Both the position numbers and the translations under genes were made by a program. DNA of 64,000 nt, taken from contig NZ_CP047210.1 of NCBI RefSeq assembly GCF_030408775.1, positions 186,001 to 250,000 of the forward strand, given 5' to 3'. Each line of letters begins with the position of its first letter. Within the stretch, counting starts at the first letter, position 1. The notes below the pieces were generated by a model. It saw only the letters and a program-made list of their open reading frames with translations. It ran no database searches and was not told the DNA's origin. This stretch comes from Corynebacterium fournieri (GTDB lineage: Bacteria; Actinomycetota; Actinomycetes; Mycobacteriales; Mycobacteriaceae). This document shows positions 2,929 through 37,268 of the stretch, one piece after another.

Positions 2929-4116
2929 ATGTACCTGGCTATCGACGTCCTGCTCGTGCTCGCCGTCGTCGCTGCCTTCATCAGCGGTTGGCGCCAGGGG
3001 GCTCTTTCGGCGGTGGTCTCCGCCGTCGGCGTCGTCGCAGGTCTGGTTGTCGGACTCGCGCTTGCGCCGTTTGCGCTGGAGGTCGCGGACTCGCAGACCG
3101 TCCGCATCGTACTGCTGGTCGCGCTGATCGTGCTGTTTGTCGGTGTGGGCAACCTTGTCGGCATCACGGTCGGCGGCAACCTGCGAGGGCGCATGCGCTC
3201 GAAGGGGCGCCGGGTCGTGGATTCGGTGCTCGGCGCGGCGTTCCAGTCCGTGGCCGTGGCGGCGGTGCTGTGGTTTATCTCCATCCCGCTCGCGGCCTCG
3301 GTGCCGGGCTCACTCGGCGACGGCATCCGCTCGTCCCGCGTGTTCAGCTCCATCAACGCCGCAGCTCCCGCCAGCGCGTCGAAACTGCCCGCAAAGCTGG
3401 CGGCGCTTCTCGACGAGTCGGGGCTGCCGCCTCTGGTCTCACCGTTCGAGTCGCCGCGCGGCGCTAATGTGGCGGCGCCGGACGACGGTGTGGTGGAACC
3501 GGAGGTCGTCGAGAAGCTGCGCCCGAGCGTCGTGCACGTGATGGGGGACGCAGAAAGCTGCCGCCGCCGCCTGATGGGCTCGGGCTTCGTCATCGAGGAC
3601 GGCTACGTGCTCACCAATGCGCACGTGGTGGCCGGCACGGAACGGGTGGCGCTGGACACCGTGGTAGGGGTCAAACCCGCGCAGGTGGTGCTCTACGACC
3701 CCGACACCGACATCGCGGTGCTGCGCGCCGAAGATCTGGGGCTGCCGGCGCTGCGCTGGGCCGAAGACGAGCTCGCGATGGGCGACGACGCCGTGGTGAT
3801 GGGGCACCCGAAGTCCGGGCCGTTTCAGGCCGCGCCGGTGCGCATCCGCGGCAAGCTGGAAATCGCCGGTCCGGACATCTACACCACCGGCCGCGTGGAG
3901 CGCGAGGCGTACACGATCCGCGGCAACATCCGCCAAGGCAACTCCGGCGGGCCGCTGCTCACCCCGGAAGGCGAGGCCGCCGGCATGATCTTCGGCGCGT
4001 CCCTGGACACCTCAGAAACGGGATACGCGCTGACTGCACATCAAGTGCAGCAGCGCGTAGGGGATGTGCGGAGCCTGACTCGCCCCGCGGATACGCAAGC
4101 GTGCGTTAGCGGTTAA
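2929..4116 (+). CDS. marP: MarP-like membrane serine protease (acid/oxidative stress resistance)
   Basis: 395 residues. Four predicted membrane spans in the first ~150 residues (CvpA-like) precede an extracytoplasmic chymotrypsin-like protease domain. The triad is visible: His in LTNAHVV (about residue 231), Asp in DPDTDIAVL (about 259) and Ser in RQGNSGGP (about 339). Cys at about 210 and about 392 match the pair that forms a disulfide in M. tuberculosis MarP (Rv3671c), which is needed for acid survival. Gene order with nth, TlpA-like and NUDIX is as in mycobacteria. It converges with the next gene, overlapping it by 11 bp at the 3' ends. Confidence 0.92.
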   Translation: MYLAIDVLLVLAVVAAFISGWRQGALSAVVSAVGVVAGLVVGLALAPFALEVADSQTVRIVLLVALIVLFVGVGNLVGITVGGNLRGRMRSKGRRVVDSVLGAAFQSVAVAAVLWFISIPLAASVPGSLGDGIRSSRVFSSINAAAPASASKLPAKLAALLDESGLPPLVSPFESPRGANVAAPDDGVVEPEVVEKLRPSVVHVMGDAESCRRRLMGSGFVIEDGYVLTNAHVVAGTERVALDTVVGVKPAQVVLYDPDTDIAVLRAEDLGLPALRWAEDELAMGDDAVVMGHPKSGPFQAAPVRIRGKLEIAGPDIYTTGRVEREAYTIRGNIRQGNSGGPLLTPEGEAAGMIFGASLDTSETGYALTAHQVQQRVGDVRSLTRPADTQACVSG

Positions 4117-32359: not shown

Positions 32360-32365
32360 AGTCTA
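32360..32365 (-). promoter_or_regulatory. -10 element of the M1 peptidase gene overlapping the S9 peptidase stop codon
   Basis: Reads TAGACT on the minus strand, 8 nt before the ATG at 32351. TAG is the in-frame stop of the S9 gene. Confidence 0.5.
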
Positions 32366-34381
32366 CGCCAGGCCCTCGCGCGCCTTGTCGTGGATCCGGC
32401 GGGAGATCCATTCGTAGATCAACGCCTCCACCCGCGACACCTGTGCATTATCGGCGGCGCCGGCGTGCCCGCCTGCGGTGTTTTCGAAGTAGTCCACCGG
32501 CTGGCCCGCCTTCCACAGCGCAAGGGCGAAGGTGCGGGCGTGGGCGGGGTGGACCCGGTCGTCGCGCGTGGAGGTGGTCACCAGCGCTGGGGGATAGACC
32601 ACCTCCTCGCGCGGGCGGATGTTGTGCAGCGGCGACCACCGCTCGATGGCGGCGCGCTCGTCGGGGTTGTCCGGGTCGCCGTACTCCGCCATCCAGGACG
32701 CGCCGGCGGAAAGCATGTGGTAGCGCAGCATGTCTGTCAGAGGCACCTGGATCACGGCGGCGCCGAAGCACTCCGGGTACTGCACCAGCGCGCCGGAGGT
32801 GAGCAGCCCGCCGTTGGAGCCGCCGCGGATGGCAATCTGCTCTGGCGTGGCGTAGCCCCGCTCGACGACGTCCTCCAGGACGGCCCGGTGGTCCTCCCAG
32901 ACCTTGTGCCGGTTGGTCTTGACCGCCTGCGAGTGCCATTCGGGGCCGAATTCGCCGCCGCCGCGCAGGTTGGGCTGGACGTAGAAAAAGCCGCGCTCGA
33001 GCCACGCGATGCCGCGCACGTTGGAAAACGCCGGCGTGAGCGAGACCTCGAAGCCGCCGTAGCCGCCCACCAGCGTCGGCCGCGCGCCGCGGGAGAAGTC
33101 GCCGGTGATGAAGTAGGGCACGCGCGTGCCGTCGGCGGATTCCATCCAGTGCTGGCGCGTTTCCAACCCGGTGGTGTCGAAGTACGCTGGGGCGCGCCTG
33201 ACTTCGGTGAGTTCGCCGGAGGCGTCGCCCACTAGCAGCGTGGTGGGGGTGGTAAACGAGGAAGCGGCGATCCAGAACTCGTCGCCGTCGAGCGGGCTCG
33301 TGGCCACCACGTGCGCGCTCGCGGCCTCCGGCAACGCCAGCTCGGTGCGCTGCCACGACCCCAGGCTGATGCGGAAGATGCGGGTGGCCACGTCCGCCAG
33401 GCAGGTCACCAGCACAGCTGTTTGCGTCAGCGCGATCGATTCCACCGTCGCGTCCTGTTCCAGCACGGTGAATTCGCGCTCGCCCTGCTGGAACGCGTCG
33501 AGTTCGATCACGCCCAGGGCGCCGGCGGGGACGCCGGCGAATGCGGTGCGCGGTTGGATGAACAACCACTCGCGGTGGCAGATGGCGTCGCAGTCGTCCG
33601 GCACGTCGATGAGCTCGCCGTCGACCCAGGTGCGGGAGGTGTAGAAGTCGAGCGCCCGCGTGACGACGGTCCTTCGGGCGCCCACCTCATACCCCGCGCC
33701 CACCGCCACGTCTTCGGGCTCGCCGGTGAAGATGACGGTTGCGTCGCCGCCGCGCGTGACGCGCACGACCTGCATGGGGTAGCCGGAATTGGTCAGGGTG
33801 CCGGGGCCGAAGTCCGTGCCGACCAAAATGGTGTCGCGGTCGACCCAGCTGACGTCGGTTTTGGCTTCGTCGAAGACGAAACCGACGTCGTCGGCGCTGA
33901 GGAAGCTGCGGGTGTCCAGATCGAACTCGCGCACCACGACCGCGTCCGCGCCGCCGCGCGACAGGCGGATCAGCGCCCGGTCCCAGGTCAGCGGAAGCAG
34001 CGACGAGCCTTTGAACACCCAGTCTTCGCCCTCGTCGGCAGCCAGGGCGTCGAGGTCGAGCAGCACCTCCCACTCAGTGCCGCCTCCTCCTGCTCCTTCA
34101 CTTCGTTCACCGAGGAACGAGGTGAACGAAGTGAACGAGGTGAAGGAGCAGCGCCGCCACAACCCTCGCGGGTGCTCGGCGTCGCGCCAGAAGTTGTAGA
34201 GGTAGTCGCCGCGCCGGGTGACAAACGGGATGCGGTCGTCGGAATCGAGCGCGGCGAGGATGCGTTCGCGCAGGGCGTCGGTGTCGAGCCCGGCCTCCGT
34301 CGCGTTGGACCACTGTCGGGCCCATTCGAGGGCGGGGGTGCCCGTGAGGTCGTCGAGAAGCTGCGGCTCGATGTCGCGCAT
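32363..34381 (-). CDS. Prolyl oligopeptidase family (S9) serine peptidase
   Basis: 672 residues. An N-terminal beta-propeller (GDYLYNFWRDAEHPRGLWRR...) leads to a C-terminal alpha/beta-hydrolase with nucleophile GGSNGGLLTSG, Asp in TRDDRVHP and His in GGHAGAAD. It cleaves short peptides, often after Pro; no signal peptide is seen. Oddity: at about residues 79-98 the usual 'WRR-TT..EYR' segment is replaced by CSFTSFTSFTSFLGERSEG, encoded by a palindromic repeat. The start ATG directly abuts the stop codon of the preceding mycolyltransferase gene. Confidence 0.92.
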   Translation of the reverse strand: MRDIEPQLLDDLTGTPALEWARQWSNATEAGLDTDALRERILAALDSDDRIPFVTRRGDYLYNFWRDAEHPRGLWRRCSFTSFTSFTSFLGERSEGAGGGGTEWEVLLDLDALAADEGEDWVFKGSSLLPLTWDRALIRLSRGGADAVVVREFDLDTRSFLSADDVGFVFDEAKTDVSWVDRDTILVGTDFGPGTLTNSGYPMQVVRVTRGGDATVIFTGEPEDVAVGAGYEVGARRTVVTRALDFYTSRTWVDGELIDVPDDCDAICHREWLFIQPRTAFAGVPAGALGVIELDAFQQGEREFTVLEQDATVESIALTQTAVLVTCLADVATRIFRISLGSWQRTELALPEAASAHVVATSPLDGDEFWIAASSFTTPTTLLVGDASGELTEVRRAPAYFDTTGLETRQHWMESADGTRVPYFITGDFSRGARPTLVGGYGGFEVSLTPAFSNVRGIAWLERGFFYVQPNLRGGGEFGPEWHSQAVKTNRHKVWEDHRAVLEDVVERGYATPEQIAIRGGSNGGLLTSGALVQYPECFGAAVIQVPLTDMLRYHMLSAGASWMAEYGDPDNPDERAAIERWSPLHNIRPREEVVYPPALVTTSTRDDRVHPAHARTFALALWKAGQPVDYFENTAGGHAGAADNAQVSRVEALIYEWISRRIHDKAREGLA
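34090..34151. repeat. In-frame palindromic repeat inside the S9 peptidase gene
   Basis: A 21-bp left arm (34090-34110) is complementary to a right region (34122-34151) that contains an extra 9-bp GTGAACGAG unit. The element is open in the coding frame and encodes Ser-Phe-Thr repeats. It looks like an inserted palindromic element, not an ancestral part of the propeller. Confidence 0.7.
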
Positions 34382-35503
34382 TTAGACCCCCAGGGCGGGC
34401 GCGATGGTGGTGGTCCAGGCGCGGTTCATGTCTTCGGTCCAGTACGGCCAGGAGTGGGTGCCCGCGTTGCGCAGCTCGAAGTGGGCGGGGATGCCCAGGC
34501 CGTCCAACTTGGCCTTCAGGTCGTGGGTGCAGGTGTTCACTGCGGCCTCGATGACGCCGCCTTCGACCTGCAGCACCGCGGAGCCGGCCTGCGCGGCGAT
34601 CTGCGGGGCGCCGATGCCCATGAGGTAGCTGACCTGGTCCGGCCTGCCCGCAAGTCCCGTGCCGGAGGAGATGTACAGCTTGGTGCCGCGCAGTTTTTCA
34701 GCGCCCAGCAGTGCGTCGTTGTAGCGGTTGTACGGGCTGTTCATCGGACCCCACATCTTCTCCGGAGTGACCGTTTTGAAGTCGGGGGTGGCCGATGCGC
34801 GGTTGACCGTTACGCGGGCGAAGTTGTAGCCGTGCGGCGAGGATGTGGCCGCGCAGCCGGAAAACGCCGCCGCGGCCTGGTACATCCCTGGGTTGTGCTG
34901 CGGCAGCAGCAGGGCGGAGGTGGCGGACATGGACACGCCTGCCACGGCGCGGCGGCCGTTGGCGCCCACCACGCGCTCGATCGGGCCCGGCAGCTCCTTG
35001 GTTAGGAAGGTCTCCCACTTCTGCGGGCCGTTGATGTAGTCGGAGTGCACGTTCTCGTCTACCCAGTCGGTGTAGTAGGAAAACGCGCCGGCCTGCGGCA
35101 CGACCACGTTGACCCGCTTGCCGGCGAAGAAGTCCTTGGCCGGGTACAGCTTCAGCCAGTCCTGGTTCTGCTCCGCGCCGCCGGCGCCGTTGAGCAGGTA
35201 CAGGGTGGGCGCGTTTGGCACGCGGTTGCCCGCCTGGTCGGTCGCGGGGATGACGGCCACGGGGATGTCGCGGCGCATGGAAGGGGAAAAGACCTTGTAG
35301 GAGAGCACGTTTTTGTGGTCGACCTGGTTGACCCACTCCTGCACCTGGCCGGTGCGGGTGATCCGCGGCGGGTCGGCCGGGGCGTCCCACGGCTTGACCG
35401 TCCCCTCCGGGGCCGCTGTCTGGGCCGGCGCTGCGGGGGCGCCGGAGCATGCGAGGGAGATTGCGGTGAGGGCGGACAGCGCCGCCGCCTTGATCTTCTT
35501 CAT
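34382..35503 (-). CDS. Corynomycolyltransferase (antigen-85/Cmt family)
   Basis: 373 residues from ATG 35503. Signal peptide (KKIKAAALSALTAISLAC, cleavage probably after APA). The esterase-type alpha/beta-hydrolase has TLYLLNGAGGAEQNQDW, nucleophile Ser in AGVSMSATSALLL and catalytic His in GTHSWPYW near the C-terminus. It transfers corynomycolate between trehalose mycolates, arabinogalactan or O-mycoloylated proteins outside the membrane. With the PorA-like peptide and the second mycolyltransferase it forms the same trio as cmtC-porA-cmtB in C. jeikeium. TAGAAT at 35555-35560 (minus) is a likely -10. Confidence 0.92.
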   Translation of the reverse strand: MKKIKAAALSALTAISLACSGAPAAPAQTAAPEGTVKPWDAPADPPRITRTGQVQEWVNQVDHKNVLSYKVFSPSMRRDIPVAVIPATDQAGNRVPNAPTLYLLNGAGGAEQNQDWLKLYPAKDFFAGKRVNVVVPQAGAFSYYTDWVDENVHSDYINGPQKWETFLTKELPGPIERVVGANGRRAVAGVSMSATSALLLPQHNPGMYQAAAAFSGCAATSSPHGYNFARVTVNRASATPDFKTVTPEKMWGPMNSPYNRYNDALLGAEKLRGTKLYISSGTGLAGRPDQVSYLMGIGAPQIAAQAGSAVLQVEGGVIEAAVNTCTHDLKAKLDGLGIPAHFELRNAGTHSWPYWTEDMNRAWTTTIAPALGV

Positions 35504-35554
35504 CTGTGTATCCAGTCCTGGGGGAGGGGTTAAGCTGACAGGCACTATTGCGCC

Positions 35555-35560
35555 ATTCTA
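35555..35560 (-). promoter_or_regulatory. Likely -10 element of the first mycolyltransferase gene
   Basis: Reads TAGAAT on the minus strand, leaving a leader of about 45 nt before the ATG at 35503. It lies within the 141-bp region divergent from the PorA-like gene. Confidence 0.4.
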
Positions 35561-35644
35561 AAGGACATTCGTTACTGTAGTGGCCAGCGTTACGCGTGTG
35601 GCGTGTTGCGTCACAGGCTTGTGCAACCCCGAAAGGATCCCAAC

Positions 35645-35755
35645 ATGAACCCCATCGAAACTATCCAGGTGCAGATCAACCAGGTGCTCGGCGAGCTCGT
35701 GCACGCAGGCTCTTCCATGTCCTCCACCATCGCCTACGGCCTGGGCATGTTCTAA
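35645..35755 (+). CDS. porA: PorA-like 36-residue mycomembrane channel peptide candidate
   Basis: Peptide begins MNPIETIQVQINQVLGELV and ends IAYGLGMF; it has no signal peptide and no Cys. ATG 35645 is preceded by GAAAGGAT at good spacing and the frame is closed by a strong hairpin. Corynebacterial PorA/PorH porins are 36-60-residue peptides of this type, exported without a classical signal and, in C. glutamicum, O-mycoloylated on Ser. In C. jeikeium the 40-residue PorA gene lies between cmtC and cmtB, the same placement as here. A run of Ser/Thr (SSMSST) offers candidate acylation sites. Assignment rests on synteny and character rather than visible homology. Confidence 0.72.
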   Translation: MNPIETIQVQINQVLGELVHAGSSMSSTIAYGLGMF

Positions 35756-35778
35756 GCGGCGACACCGCCAGCAACCAC

Positions 35779-35816
35779 AAAGCGGCGCCTCCCGGAATGT
35801 CGGGAGGCGCCGCTTT
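35779..35816. terminator. Bidirectional hairpin terminator between the PorA-like gene and the second mycolyltransferase
   Basis: A perfect 16-bp stem (35779-35794 with 35801-35816) and a 6-nt loop. A-rich on one end and T-rich on the other, serving the convergent genes. Confidence 0.85.
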
Positions 35817-35837
35817 AGCGTCGTCAAGCAGGGGGTG

Positions 35838-37268
35838 CTACTTGTCCAGGCCCAGCGCCTGCTTGAACACCTTGTCGTAGGACAGCTTGAGATCGTCGCG
35901 CCAGGTGCCCCAGCTGTGGGTGCCCACATTGCGCAGCTCAGCGTGGTTGACCTCGACGTCGTTGGCGCGCATCTTCACCATCAGGTCGTGGGTGCAGGCG
36001 TTCATCGCCGCCTCAATCACGCCGCCTTCAACCTGCAGCGTCAACGCGTTGGCGAATGCGCGCGAGGACGCGTCGCCCTCGTCCACGCCGAGCTTGACCA
36101 GGCGGTCCTTCAGGTAGCCCGCCGTGTCCATCTCGCCCGCCAGGCCAGTGCCGGTGGACAGGTACACCGCGGTGCCCTTCAGCTTCGCGGCGTTGACCAG
36201 CGCGTCGTTGTGCCGGTTGTAGTCGGAGCCGCGCTCGCCGAAGATGTGCTCCGGCGTCATCACGCCCGGTGCGCCACGGTCCACGGTCAGGTTCACAAAC
36301 TCCCACGGCAGCGGGGTCGAGGTGGCCGCGCAACCAGAGAAGGAGCCGACGGCGTCGTAGAAGCCCGGGTTGTGCTCTGCAAGCAAAAGCACGGAGGTCG
36401 CCGCCATGGACAGGCCCGCCACCGCGCGGTGGTCCTGGTCGGCGTTCATGTACGGCTCAACCGTCTGCGGCAGCTCGTGCGCCAGGAAGGTCGACCACAT
36501 CTGCTTGCCCTTGTAGAAGGTGTTCTTCACCGGCGGGGCAGCAGCCCAGTCCACGTAGTACGAGAATGCGCCCTCCTGCGGCACCACCACGTTCACGCCC
36601 GCGCGGCCGTAGGTGTCGAACATCTGGCGGAATGCCTGCGCAATCCAGTCGGAGTCCTGCTCGGAGCCGCCGGCGCCGTTGAGCAGGTAAACCGTCGGCG
36701 CGTTGTCCACCAGCTGGCCGTTTTCGTCGGTGGCGTGGAAGATAGCCACAGGGATGTCGCGGTCCATGGACGGGGAGTGGACGCTGATCGCCTCGTTCTT
36801 CCACACGTCCTTGTTCTGCTCCATGATGGAGACCCACCGCTGGTCGACGCCCTTGTAGGTCTTCGGCGCCTCCTGCAGCGGCTTGATGTCCGGGTGGCCC
36901 ACCGGCTCCTCCGGCACAGAGGTCAGCTCGGAGCCCTGCACCTCAGGGTTTTCGCCGTCCACCGGGTCGCTGGCCAGCTTCCCCGGGTCCTCGTCCGCGA
37001 AGACCTCGTCGACCACGGTCATCTCCGTGGTGGTGGCAACTGCCGGGGCCTCGCTCGACGGCGTGGCATCAACCACCGACGGCTTCGGTGCCTCCTCGGT
37101 GGACGTCGGCGCGGCGATGGTGGAATCCACCACAGAGACGGCCGGGTCCAGCGTGGTCACCGGCTTGCTGGCGTCGCCGTCGGCCGCGAGGTGGTGCACG
37201 GCGGGGACGGAACCTGCAGCGACAAGGGCTGCGGCAGCGATCGCCACCGCGGAGCGTGTGAGTTTCAC
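35838..37268 (-). CDS. Corynomycolyltransferase with extended acidic/Thr-rich linker
   Basis: 476 residues from GTG 37268. Signal peptide (KLTRSAVAIAAAALVAAG), then about 100 residues rich in Thr, Ser, Pro, Glu and Asp before the antigen-85-like domain. Nucleophile Ser in AGLSMAATSVLLL, catalytic His in GTHSWGTW. The linker may span the peptidoglycan/arabinogalactan layer. Catalytic domain is paralogous to that of the neighbour at 34382-35503. Likely function is mycolate transfer at the outer envelope, possibly including modification of the PorA-like peptide between the two genes (inference). Confidence 0.9.
   Translation of the reverse strand: MKLTRSAVAIAAAALVAAGSVPAVHHLAADGDASKPVTTLDPAVSVVDSTIAAPTSTEEAPKPSVVDATPSSEAPAVATTTEMTVVDEVFADEDPGKLASDPVDGENPEVQGSELTSVPEEPVGHPDIKPLQEAPKTYKGVDQRWVSIMEQNKDVWKNEAISVHSPSMDRDIPVAIFHATDENGQLVDNAPTVYLLNGAGGSEQDSDWIAQAFRQMFDTYGRAGVNVVVPQEGAFSYYVDWAAAPPVKNTFYKGKQMWSTFLAHELPQTVEPYMNADQDHRAVAGLSMAATSVLLLAEHNPGFYDAVGSFSGCAATSTPLPWEFVNLTVDRGAPGVMTPEHIFGERGSDYNRHNDALVNAAKLKGTAVYLSTGTGLAGEMDTAGYLKDRLVKLGVDEGDASSRAFANALTLQVEGGVIEAAMNACTHDLMVKMRANDVEVNHAELRNVGTHSWGTWRDDLKLSYDKVFKQALGLDK

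What the first reader, a model, noticed from the sequence alone, without database searches (positions are those of the whole stretch)
34382..37268. PorA-like 36-residue peptide between two mycolyltransferases
A short, signal-less, well-expressed-looking ORF (35645-35755: good ribosome site, 16-bp hairpin after it) lies between two mycolyltransferase genes. In C. jeikeium the 40-residue channel PorA is encoded in the same position between cmtC and cmtB. The peptide could be a divergent mycomembrane channel, and the two adjacent transferases its modifying enzymes. Ser/Thr in SSMSST are candidate O-mycoloylation sites. Genes this short are usually missed by annotation.
Basis: partly seen in the sequence, partly recalled or inferred. 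Interest (0 to 1): 0.7.

Follow-up and report, generated by a model that had tools for sequence, protein, structure and literature searches.

The report
Conserved 36-residue Corynebacterium envelope peptide
A tiny, easily missed gene found in most sampled Corynebacterium species, usually near the enzyme that attaches mycolic acid to proteins and missing where mycolic-acid synthesis is lost, probably makes a short helical protein of the bacterial outer membrane; it is not the known channel protein PorA.

Summary
The ORF at 35645-35755 is a real gene. Its profile matches 185 of 242 Corynebacterium genomes and none of 199 other genomes drawn from the order. It is under purifying selection; 75 of 91 distinct copies are exactly 36 aa. 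Usual neighbours are Cmt1-type mycolyltransferases (the protein O-mycoloyltransferase type) and lpd. The peptide is missing from all 12 high-quality genomes called Pks13-less; in six of these the transferase is gone too and the outer neighbours adjoin.

In a genome I infer to be C. glutamicum ATCC 13032, the peptide starts about 90 nt after the expected start of the published sigma-D promoter 'P2lpd', suspected of making a small RNA (PMC6338062). I read that RNA as the peptide's mRNA.

The PorA argument fails: C. jeikeium PorA lies between groEL2 and ppk2 (PMC3792995), this genome has porH/porA there, and homology to PorA, PorH or ProtX is undetectable.

Best reading: a new family of small, signal-less mycomembrane proteins, probably Cmt1 substrates. 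Modification, location and channel function are untested.

The parts
35645..35755 (+). Gene for the 36-aa peptide, stop included
   Evidence: conserved in 185 of 242 genus genomes; purifying selection
35631..35637 (+). Ribosome-binding site GAAAGGA
   Evidence: Read; similar A/G-rich sites upstream of relatives
35708..35725 (+). GSSMSS codons, candidate O-mycoloylation linker
   Evidence: SSx[ST]S in 78 of 96 distinct copies; modification itself not shown
35779..35816 (+). 17-bp hairpin between the convergent peptide and right-hand transferase genes; possible terminator
   Evidence: z -6.8; not called by the terminator scan
34382..35503 (-). Left Cmt1-type mycolyltransferase, divergent from the peptide
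   Evidence: Best PDB match Cmt1, E 4.6e-93; Ser/Glu/His aligned
35838..37268 (-). Right Cmt1-type mycolyltransferase, convergent with the peptide; present at this place in only 6 of 58 loci
   Evidence: Best PDB match Cmt1, E 1.4e-77; 6 of 58 loci
35568..35593 (-). Sigma-D-like site GTAAC-N17-CGAA pointing at the left transferase
   Evidence: listed under L218, which is this genome; consensus in PMC6338062
37349..38761 (+). lpd (dihydrolipoamide dehydrogenase; name recalled and used in PMC6338062), usual right-hand neighbour in the genus
   Evidence: Downstream on the same strand in 56 of 58 loci
32363..34381 (-). Prolyl-oligopeptidase-like gene (name recalled), outer left neighbour; adjoins lpd in six Pks13-less genomes

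Best explanation
35645-35755 encodes a member of an undescribed, Corynebacterium-specific family of about 36-residue, signal-less, acidic proteins. The likely form is an amphipathic N-terminal helix, a GSSxSS linker and a short hydrophobic C-terminal segment. The most likely working: it is made from its own promoter (sigma-D-type in many species), leaves the cytoplasm by the unknown route used by PorA and PorH, is O-mycoloylated on a linker serine by a Cmt1-type enzyme such as those encoded beside it, and so settles in the mycomembrane as a structural or pore-type protein. Shown here: coding, conservation, synteny, absence where Pks13 is absent, Cmt1 type of the neighbours, a promoter motif upstream in part of the genus. 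Inferred: export, modification, location, role.
For: Profile: 185 of 242 genus genomes, 0 of 199 others from the order. Synteny: of 58 loci, lpd downstream in 56 and a transferase on the other side in 54. All 189 neighbouring transferase ORFs (178 distinct) are closest to the Cmt1-like one of six paralogues in the inferred C. glutamicum. Window transferases match Cmt1 in the PDB with Ser/Glu/His aligned. Peptide in 0 of 12 Pks13-less genomes versus 183 of 227 others, Fisher P 1e-8, relatedness not corrected; in six of the 12 the transferase and peptide are both gone and POP adjoins lpd. GTAAC-N17-CGWW upstream on the peptide strand in 27 of 96 loci, shuffled mean 0.3. In the inferred C. glutamicum, CTAAC-N17-CGTT puts a transcript start about 360 nt before lpd and about 90 nt before the peptide, where PMC6338062 reports sigma-D-dependent P2lpd with a GTT -10 and a possible small RNA (passage). 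MytC (Cmt1) modifies PorA Ser15, modelled in a linker between two helices (PMC11927696, passages). Helical periodicity in columns 3-21, permutation P 0.008.
Against: No protein or modification data. The Ser cluster is not universal: SSx[ST]S in 78 of 96 copies, and absent in several diverged peptides at the same site. The window lacks GTAAC-N17-CGWW on the peptide strand; it has it on the transferase strand. 25 of 38 Pks13-bearing genomes without a profile match show no peptide over 10 bits upstream of lpd, although 37 of the 38 keep the transferase. In the inferred C. glutamicum the Cmt1-like gene is about 24 kb away. The part of the O-mycoloylome table that I saw (PMC11066868) names no such peptide, though the authors say the method is not ideal for small proteins. 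PMC6338062 says lpd was not sigma-D-dependent in C. glutamicum R. The C-terminal segment shows no significant helical periodicity (P 0.27).
Confidence: 0.55

Rival explanations
1. The peptide is not a substrate but a partner of Cmt1: a small adaptor, activator or chaperone-like cofactor that binds the enzyme and helps choose or deliver proteins for mycoloylation.
For: Usual proximity to Cmt1-type genes; joint absence with them in six Pks13-less genomes. A precedent: small protein Cgl2215 binds and activates MytA (PMC10441969, passages). PMC11066868 raises an adaptor protein as a possibility (passage).
Against: MytC alone modifies PorA in vitro (PMC11927696, passages). The Ser cluster is among the most conserved parts of the peptide.
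Confidence: 0.2
2. The peptide forms a homo-oligomeric mycomembrane channel, as the 40-aa PorA of C. jeikeium does. This is compatible with its being a Cmt1 substrate.
For: Length, lack of Lys/Arg (73 of 91 copies), amphipathic N-terminal segment; single 37- and 40-aa peptides are known to form channels (PMC5944148, PMC3792995, passages).
Against: No homology to PorA or PorH; porH and porA are present elsewhere in this genome and in the inferred C. glutamicum, so no channel is missing.
Confidence: 0.15
3. The ORF is a leader peptide or part of a small RNA that regulates lpd.
For: It usually lies directly upstream of lpd on the same strand; PMC6338062 suggests a small RNA from P2lpd.
Against: In the window and in 6 of 58 loci a gene on the other strand lies between it and lpd; the amino-acid sequence, not only the RNA, is under selection; length and C-terminal residue are conserved; lpd is kept in genomes without the peptide.
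Confidence: 0.05
4. A membrane-active stress or toxin-like peptide unrelated to mycoloylation.
For: Short, partly hydrophobic, stress promoter in part of the genus.
Against: Fixed synteny in the genus and absence from all 12 Pks13-less genomes.
Confidence: 0.04

Closest known systems
ProtX (cg2875, C. glutamicum)
   Same: 38 aa versus 36, no Lys or Arg, mycoloylated in a MytC-dependent way (PMC5310785, passages); works like the proposed role
   Different: No detectable homology; different locus; modified Ser37 near the C-terminus, not in a central cluster
PorA and PorH (groEL2-ppk2 locus)
   Same: Short, helical, signal-less and Cmt1-dependent (PMC12632848, PMC11927696, PMC5944148, passages)
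   Different: Different locus; both also present in this genome; hhalign probabilities 0.8 and 0.3 percent; the window genome's PorA finds 12 of 151 genomes at E<=0.01, the peptide 80 of 151
Single-peptide channels PorA of C. jeikeium and C. urealyticum
   Same: 40 and 37 aa, no partner needed (PMC3792995, PMC5944148, passages)
   Different: Encoded at groEL2-ppk2; the 41-aa homologue in a genome that I infer to be C. jeikeium Cj37130 scores 1.1 bits, 22 of 1000 shuffles as good
Cgl2215, activator of MytA
   Same: Small corynebacterial protein tied to a mycoloyltransferase (PMC10441969, passages)
   Different: Authors found homologues in only a few species; partners MytA, not Cmt1; sequence not compared here

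Membership tests
PorA/PorH channel family | Gene between groEL2 and ppk2 | tested here: not met
   Peptide lies at the transferase-lpd locus; groEL2-ppk2 of the same genome holds separate porH and porA
PorA/PorH channel family | Sequence homology | tested here: not met
   hhalign probabilities 0.8 and 0.3 percent; five PorA/PorH sequences score from no reported hit to 1.1 bits against the peptide profile
PorA/PorH channel family | Under 60 aa, no signal peptide, amphipathic helix | tested here: inconclusive
   36 aa; helical periodicity P 0.008 for columns 3-21 but P 0.27 for 27-36; no signal peptide seen by eye, no predictor run; structure prediction switched off
PorA/PorH channel family | Channel activity in lipid bilayers | not testable with these tools
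   None
O-mycoloylated mycomembrane proteins | Covalent mycolate on Ser, Cmt1-dependent | not testable with these tools
   Indirect only: Cmt1-type neighbours, Ser cluster, absence with Pks13
ProtX | Sequence homology | tested here: not met
   Profile score -2.3 bits, 763 of 1000 shuffles as good
Cmt1/MytC (the two neighbouring enzymes) | Closest to Cmt1, catalytic Ser/Glu/His kept | tested here: met
Cmt1/MytC (the two neighbouring enzymes) | Transfers mycolate to protein | not testable with these tools
   None
Sigma-D regulon | GTAAC-N17-CGAT-type promoter | tested here: inconclusive
   27 of 96 loci on the peptide strand, 20 with CGTT and 1 with CGAT, versus 0.3 expected; not on that strand in the window; P2lpd reported for C. 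glutamicum

The most novel reading that the evidence does not exclude
The sigma-D-driven 'small RNA' from P2lpd of C. glutamicum is the mRNA of a further class of mycomembrane protein: an ancestral 36-residue O-mycoloylated peptide, conserved in sequence far more widely than PorA, that is a founding substrate of Cmt1 and assembles as an envelope-stress pore or as a mycomembrane-to-wall link.
Probability: 0.25. Interest if true: 0.8.

Novelty: new member of a known kind. Interest (0 to 1): 0.62.

Why it matters
If right, the corynebacterial outer membrane has a widespread small protein that the work I could read has not described, encoded near the enzyme that lipidates proteins. It would give Cmt1 a conserved natural substrate or partner, reinterpret a published small RNA of the model organism as a protein gene, and offer a very short system for asking how signal-less proteins reach the mycomembrane, which the literature that I saw calls an open question (PMC5944148, PMC12632848, passages).

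Tried and rejected
Rejected: chance ORF; leader peptide of lpd; orthologue of PorA, PorH or ProtX. NCBIfam gave no family for the peptide at E<=1; Pfam gave only UBA_6 at 14.6 bits, under its cut-off of 23.5; PHROGs and PADLOC were not searched. Existing reports: ten paper searches listed none whose title or abstract start names this peptide; they cover only the held open-access library. PMC7775120 (C. glutamicum envelope mutants; it mentions dihydrolipoamide dehydrogenase once) was seen only as a listing. The papers cited were read as passages found by term, never whole. The C-terminal segment failed the helix test. The peptide-length figures are invalid (index mismatch) and were redone. Not examined: lpd upstream DNA of 8 of the 57 genomes without a profile match (6 not fetched, among them G224, Pks13-less; 2 without an lpd match); transferases elsewhere in the Pks13-less genomes; independence of the Pks13 losses on a tree.
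Full report
WHAT IS THERE. The window lies in a 2.39-Mb single-contig genome. By lpd the nearest named loci (95-96 percent) are C. haemomassiliense, C. mucifaciens, C. wankanglinii and some unnamed species (which may leave out the window's own record). At 35645-35755 (+) there is a 36-codon ORF with a GAAAGGA ribosome site and a 17-bp hairpin after it. It has one copy in the genome. It is flanked on the minus strand by two PF00756 genes, then lpd on the right and a prolyl-oligopeptidase-like gene on the left (that last name is recalled).

IT IS A GENE. With the single sequence, 106 of 151 genus genomes match at E<=1, 80 of 151 at E<=0.01. With a 36-row profile, 185 of 242 match at E<=0.01; the profile's own members are among these by construction. 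Of 200 genomes drawn from the order (61 genera) only this one matches (20 rows shown). Pooled pN/pS is 0.23 over 7 close relatives, with most variation at third positions. Of 96 distinct copies over 25 bits, 91 have a Met start, 75 of the 91 are exactly 36 aa, 73 of the 91 have no Lys or Arg, 77 of 96 end in Phe and 78 of 96 carry SSx[ST]S.

DIVERGED OR MISSING COPIES. The 57 genomes without a profile match were found by subtraction. Of these, 55 have lpd, and I fetched the DNA upstream of lpd in 49: 11 Pks13-less and 38 others. Of the 38, 37 keep a transferase upstream of lpd and 13 show a weak peptide match over 10 bits, eight of these exactly 36 codons, several without the Ser cluster; 25 show none. 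In the 11 Pks13-less ones the best score was 2.1 bits. Among 38 named Corynebacterium loci, 30 show the peptide (3 of them at 11.7 to 20.2 bits) and 8 do not; in one of the 8 (L169) the contig ends before the place. Two C. jeikeium loci (L189, L192) are among the 8. Of 19 loci from other genera none shows it.

NEIGHBOURHOOD. In 58 loci of about 11.5 kb around a peptide, lpd follows on the same strand in 56, a transferase lies on the other side on the opposite strand in 54, and in 6 a further transferase lies between peptide and lpd as in the window. These 58 were picked from matches; two come from one genome. Both window transferases have Cmt1 (4h18, 8qhf) as best PDB match, at E 4.6e-93 and 1.4e-77 against 3.7e-28 and 3.3e-19 for the next protein, PS1, with catalytic Ser, Glu and His aligned (residues named in PMC11927696). 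All 189 neighbouring transferase ORFs (178 distinct; named and unnamed loci overlap) are closest to the Cmt1-like one of six paralogues in the inferred C. glutamicum. PMC11927696 and PMC12632848, both seen as passages, name this enzyme as the one that mycoloylates PorA and PorH. In that genome the Cmt1-like gene is at 362-363 kb and the peptide at 387 kb (peptide place as fetched in L140), with no transferase in the 4.7 kb before lpd. PMC7533341 lists a deletion cg0414-cg0440 (passage), which fits a cluster between cmt1 (cg0413) and lpd (cg0441) there.

ABSENCE WITH MYCOLATE SYNTHESIS. Twelve high-quality genomes have no Pks13 match or one no better than 1.9e-14, while the rest reach 1e-109 or better, apart from two incomplete genomes (G077, G118) that I left out together with a third incomplete one (G214). 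The peptide is in 0 of the 12 and in 183 of the other 227 (P 1e-8, relatedness not corrected). I looked at 11 of the 12 lpd regions: no transferase in any; in 6 the oligopeptidase-like gene and lpd lie 128-149 nt apart; in 5 that gene was not found either. By arrangement and lpd score these seem to be at least three lineages (my judgement, no tree). PMC8733736 (passages) reports that four species without mycolates lack the fadD32-pks13-accD4 locus.

EXPRESSION. In the 260 nt upstream of 96 distinct peptides, GTAAC-N17-CG[AT][AT] occurs on the peptide strand in 27 and on the transferase strand in 14, shuffled mean 0.3; spacings of 15, 16 and 18 give 0, 1 and 0 on the peptide strand. The rate in whole loci predicts 0.6. 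This is the sigma-D pattern of PMC6338062, though 20 of the 27 have CGTT and only 1 CGAT. That paper reports sigma-D-dependent P2lpd 360 nt upstream of lpd, GTT in its -10, and a possible small RNA (passage). In the inferred C. glutamicum, CTAAC-N17-CGTT puts a start 358-362 nt before the aligned lpd start, if transcription begins 4-8 nt after the motif, and the motif ends 95 nt before the peptide ATG. So I read that RNA as the peptide's mRNA. The window has no such motif on the peptide strand; it has one toward the left transferase.

WHAT IT IS NOT. This genome has a 42-aa PorH and a 48-aa PorA at groEL2-ppk2, and the inferred C. glutamicum has PorH of 57 and PorA of 45 aa there. Profile comparisons with PorA and PorH are negative, and so is ProtX; the nearest, a C. 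jeikeium-type PorA, reaches 1.1 bits with 22 of 1000 shuffles as good. A PorA profile run on 14 genomes found groEL2-ppk2 copies in 12 and not the peptide (most of its rows come from these genomes).

MECHANISM. Columns 3-21 have helical periodicity (P 0.008); columns 27-36 do not reach significance (P 0.27). With the Gly/Ser linker this suggests helix, linker, short hydrophobic tail. In the published MytC-PorA model the target Ser15 sits in a linker between two helices, and mapped sites favour Ser among Gly, Ala and Ser. I therefore favour a Cmt1 substrate that ends in the mycomembrane.

Noticed in passing
window 34095-34153: Near-palindromic stretch (cttcacttcgttcac ... gtgaacgaagtgaacg) inside the oligopeptidase-like ORF, giving an in-frame SFTSFTSFTSF segment; looks like an inserted repeat.
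   Followed up: no
window 36860-37200: The right-hand Cmt1-type enzyme has a Ser/Thr/Glu/Pro-rich N-terminal stretch of roughly 100 residues that the left one lacks.
   Followed up: no
L068 and L069 (both genome G144): Two peptide copies in one genome, one beside lpd and one with no transferase or lpd found within about 5.7 kb. G226 also has two matches.
   Followed up: no
L189, L192; also L188, L190, L193: C. jeikeium strains and similar loci (lpd 70-71 percent) keep a transferase upstream of lpd but show no recognisable peptide.
   Followed up: partly
L092 (genome G111): Contig length 2,311,380 equals that given for C. atypicum DSM 44849 in the abstract start of PMC4153484 (listing), a species once reported to lack mycolates (PMC8733736, passage); it has peptide, transferase and Pks13.
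   Followed up: partly
L263, minus strand, start near 3111: ProtX gene of the inferred C. glutamicum, 38 aa, serines at the six positions given in PMC5310785.
   Followed up: yes
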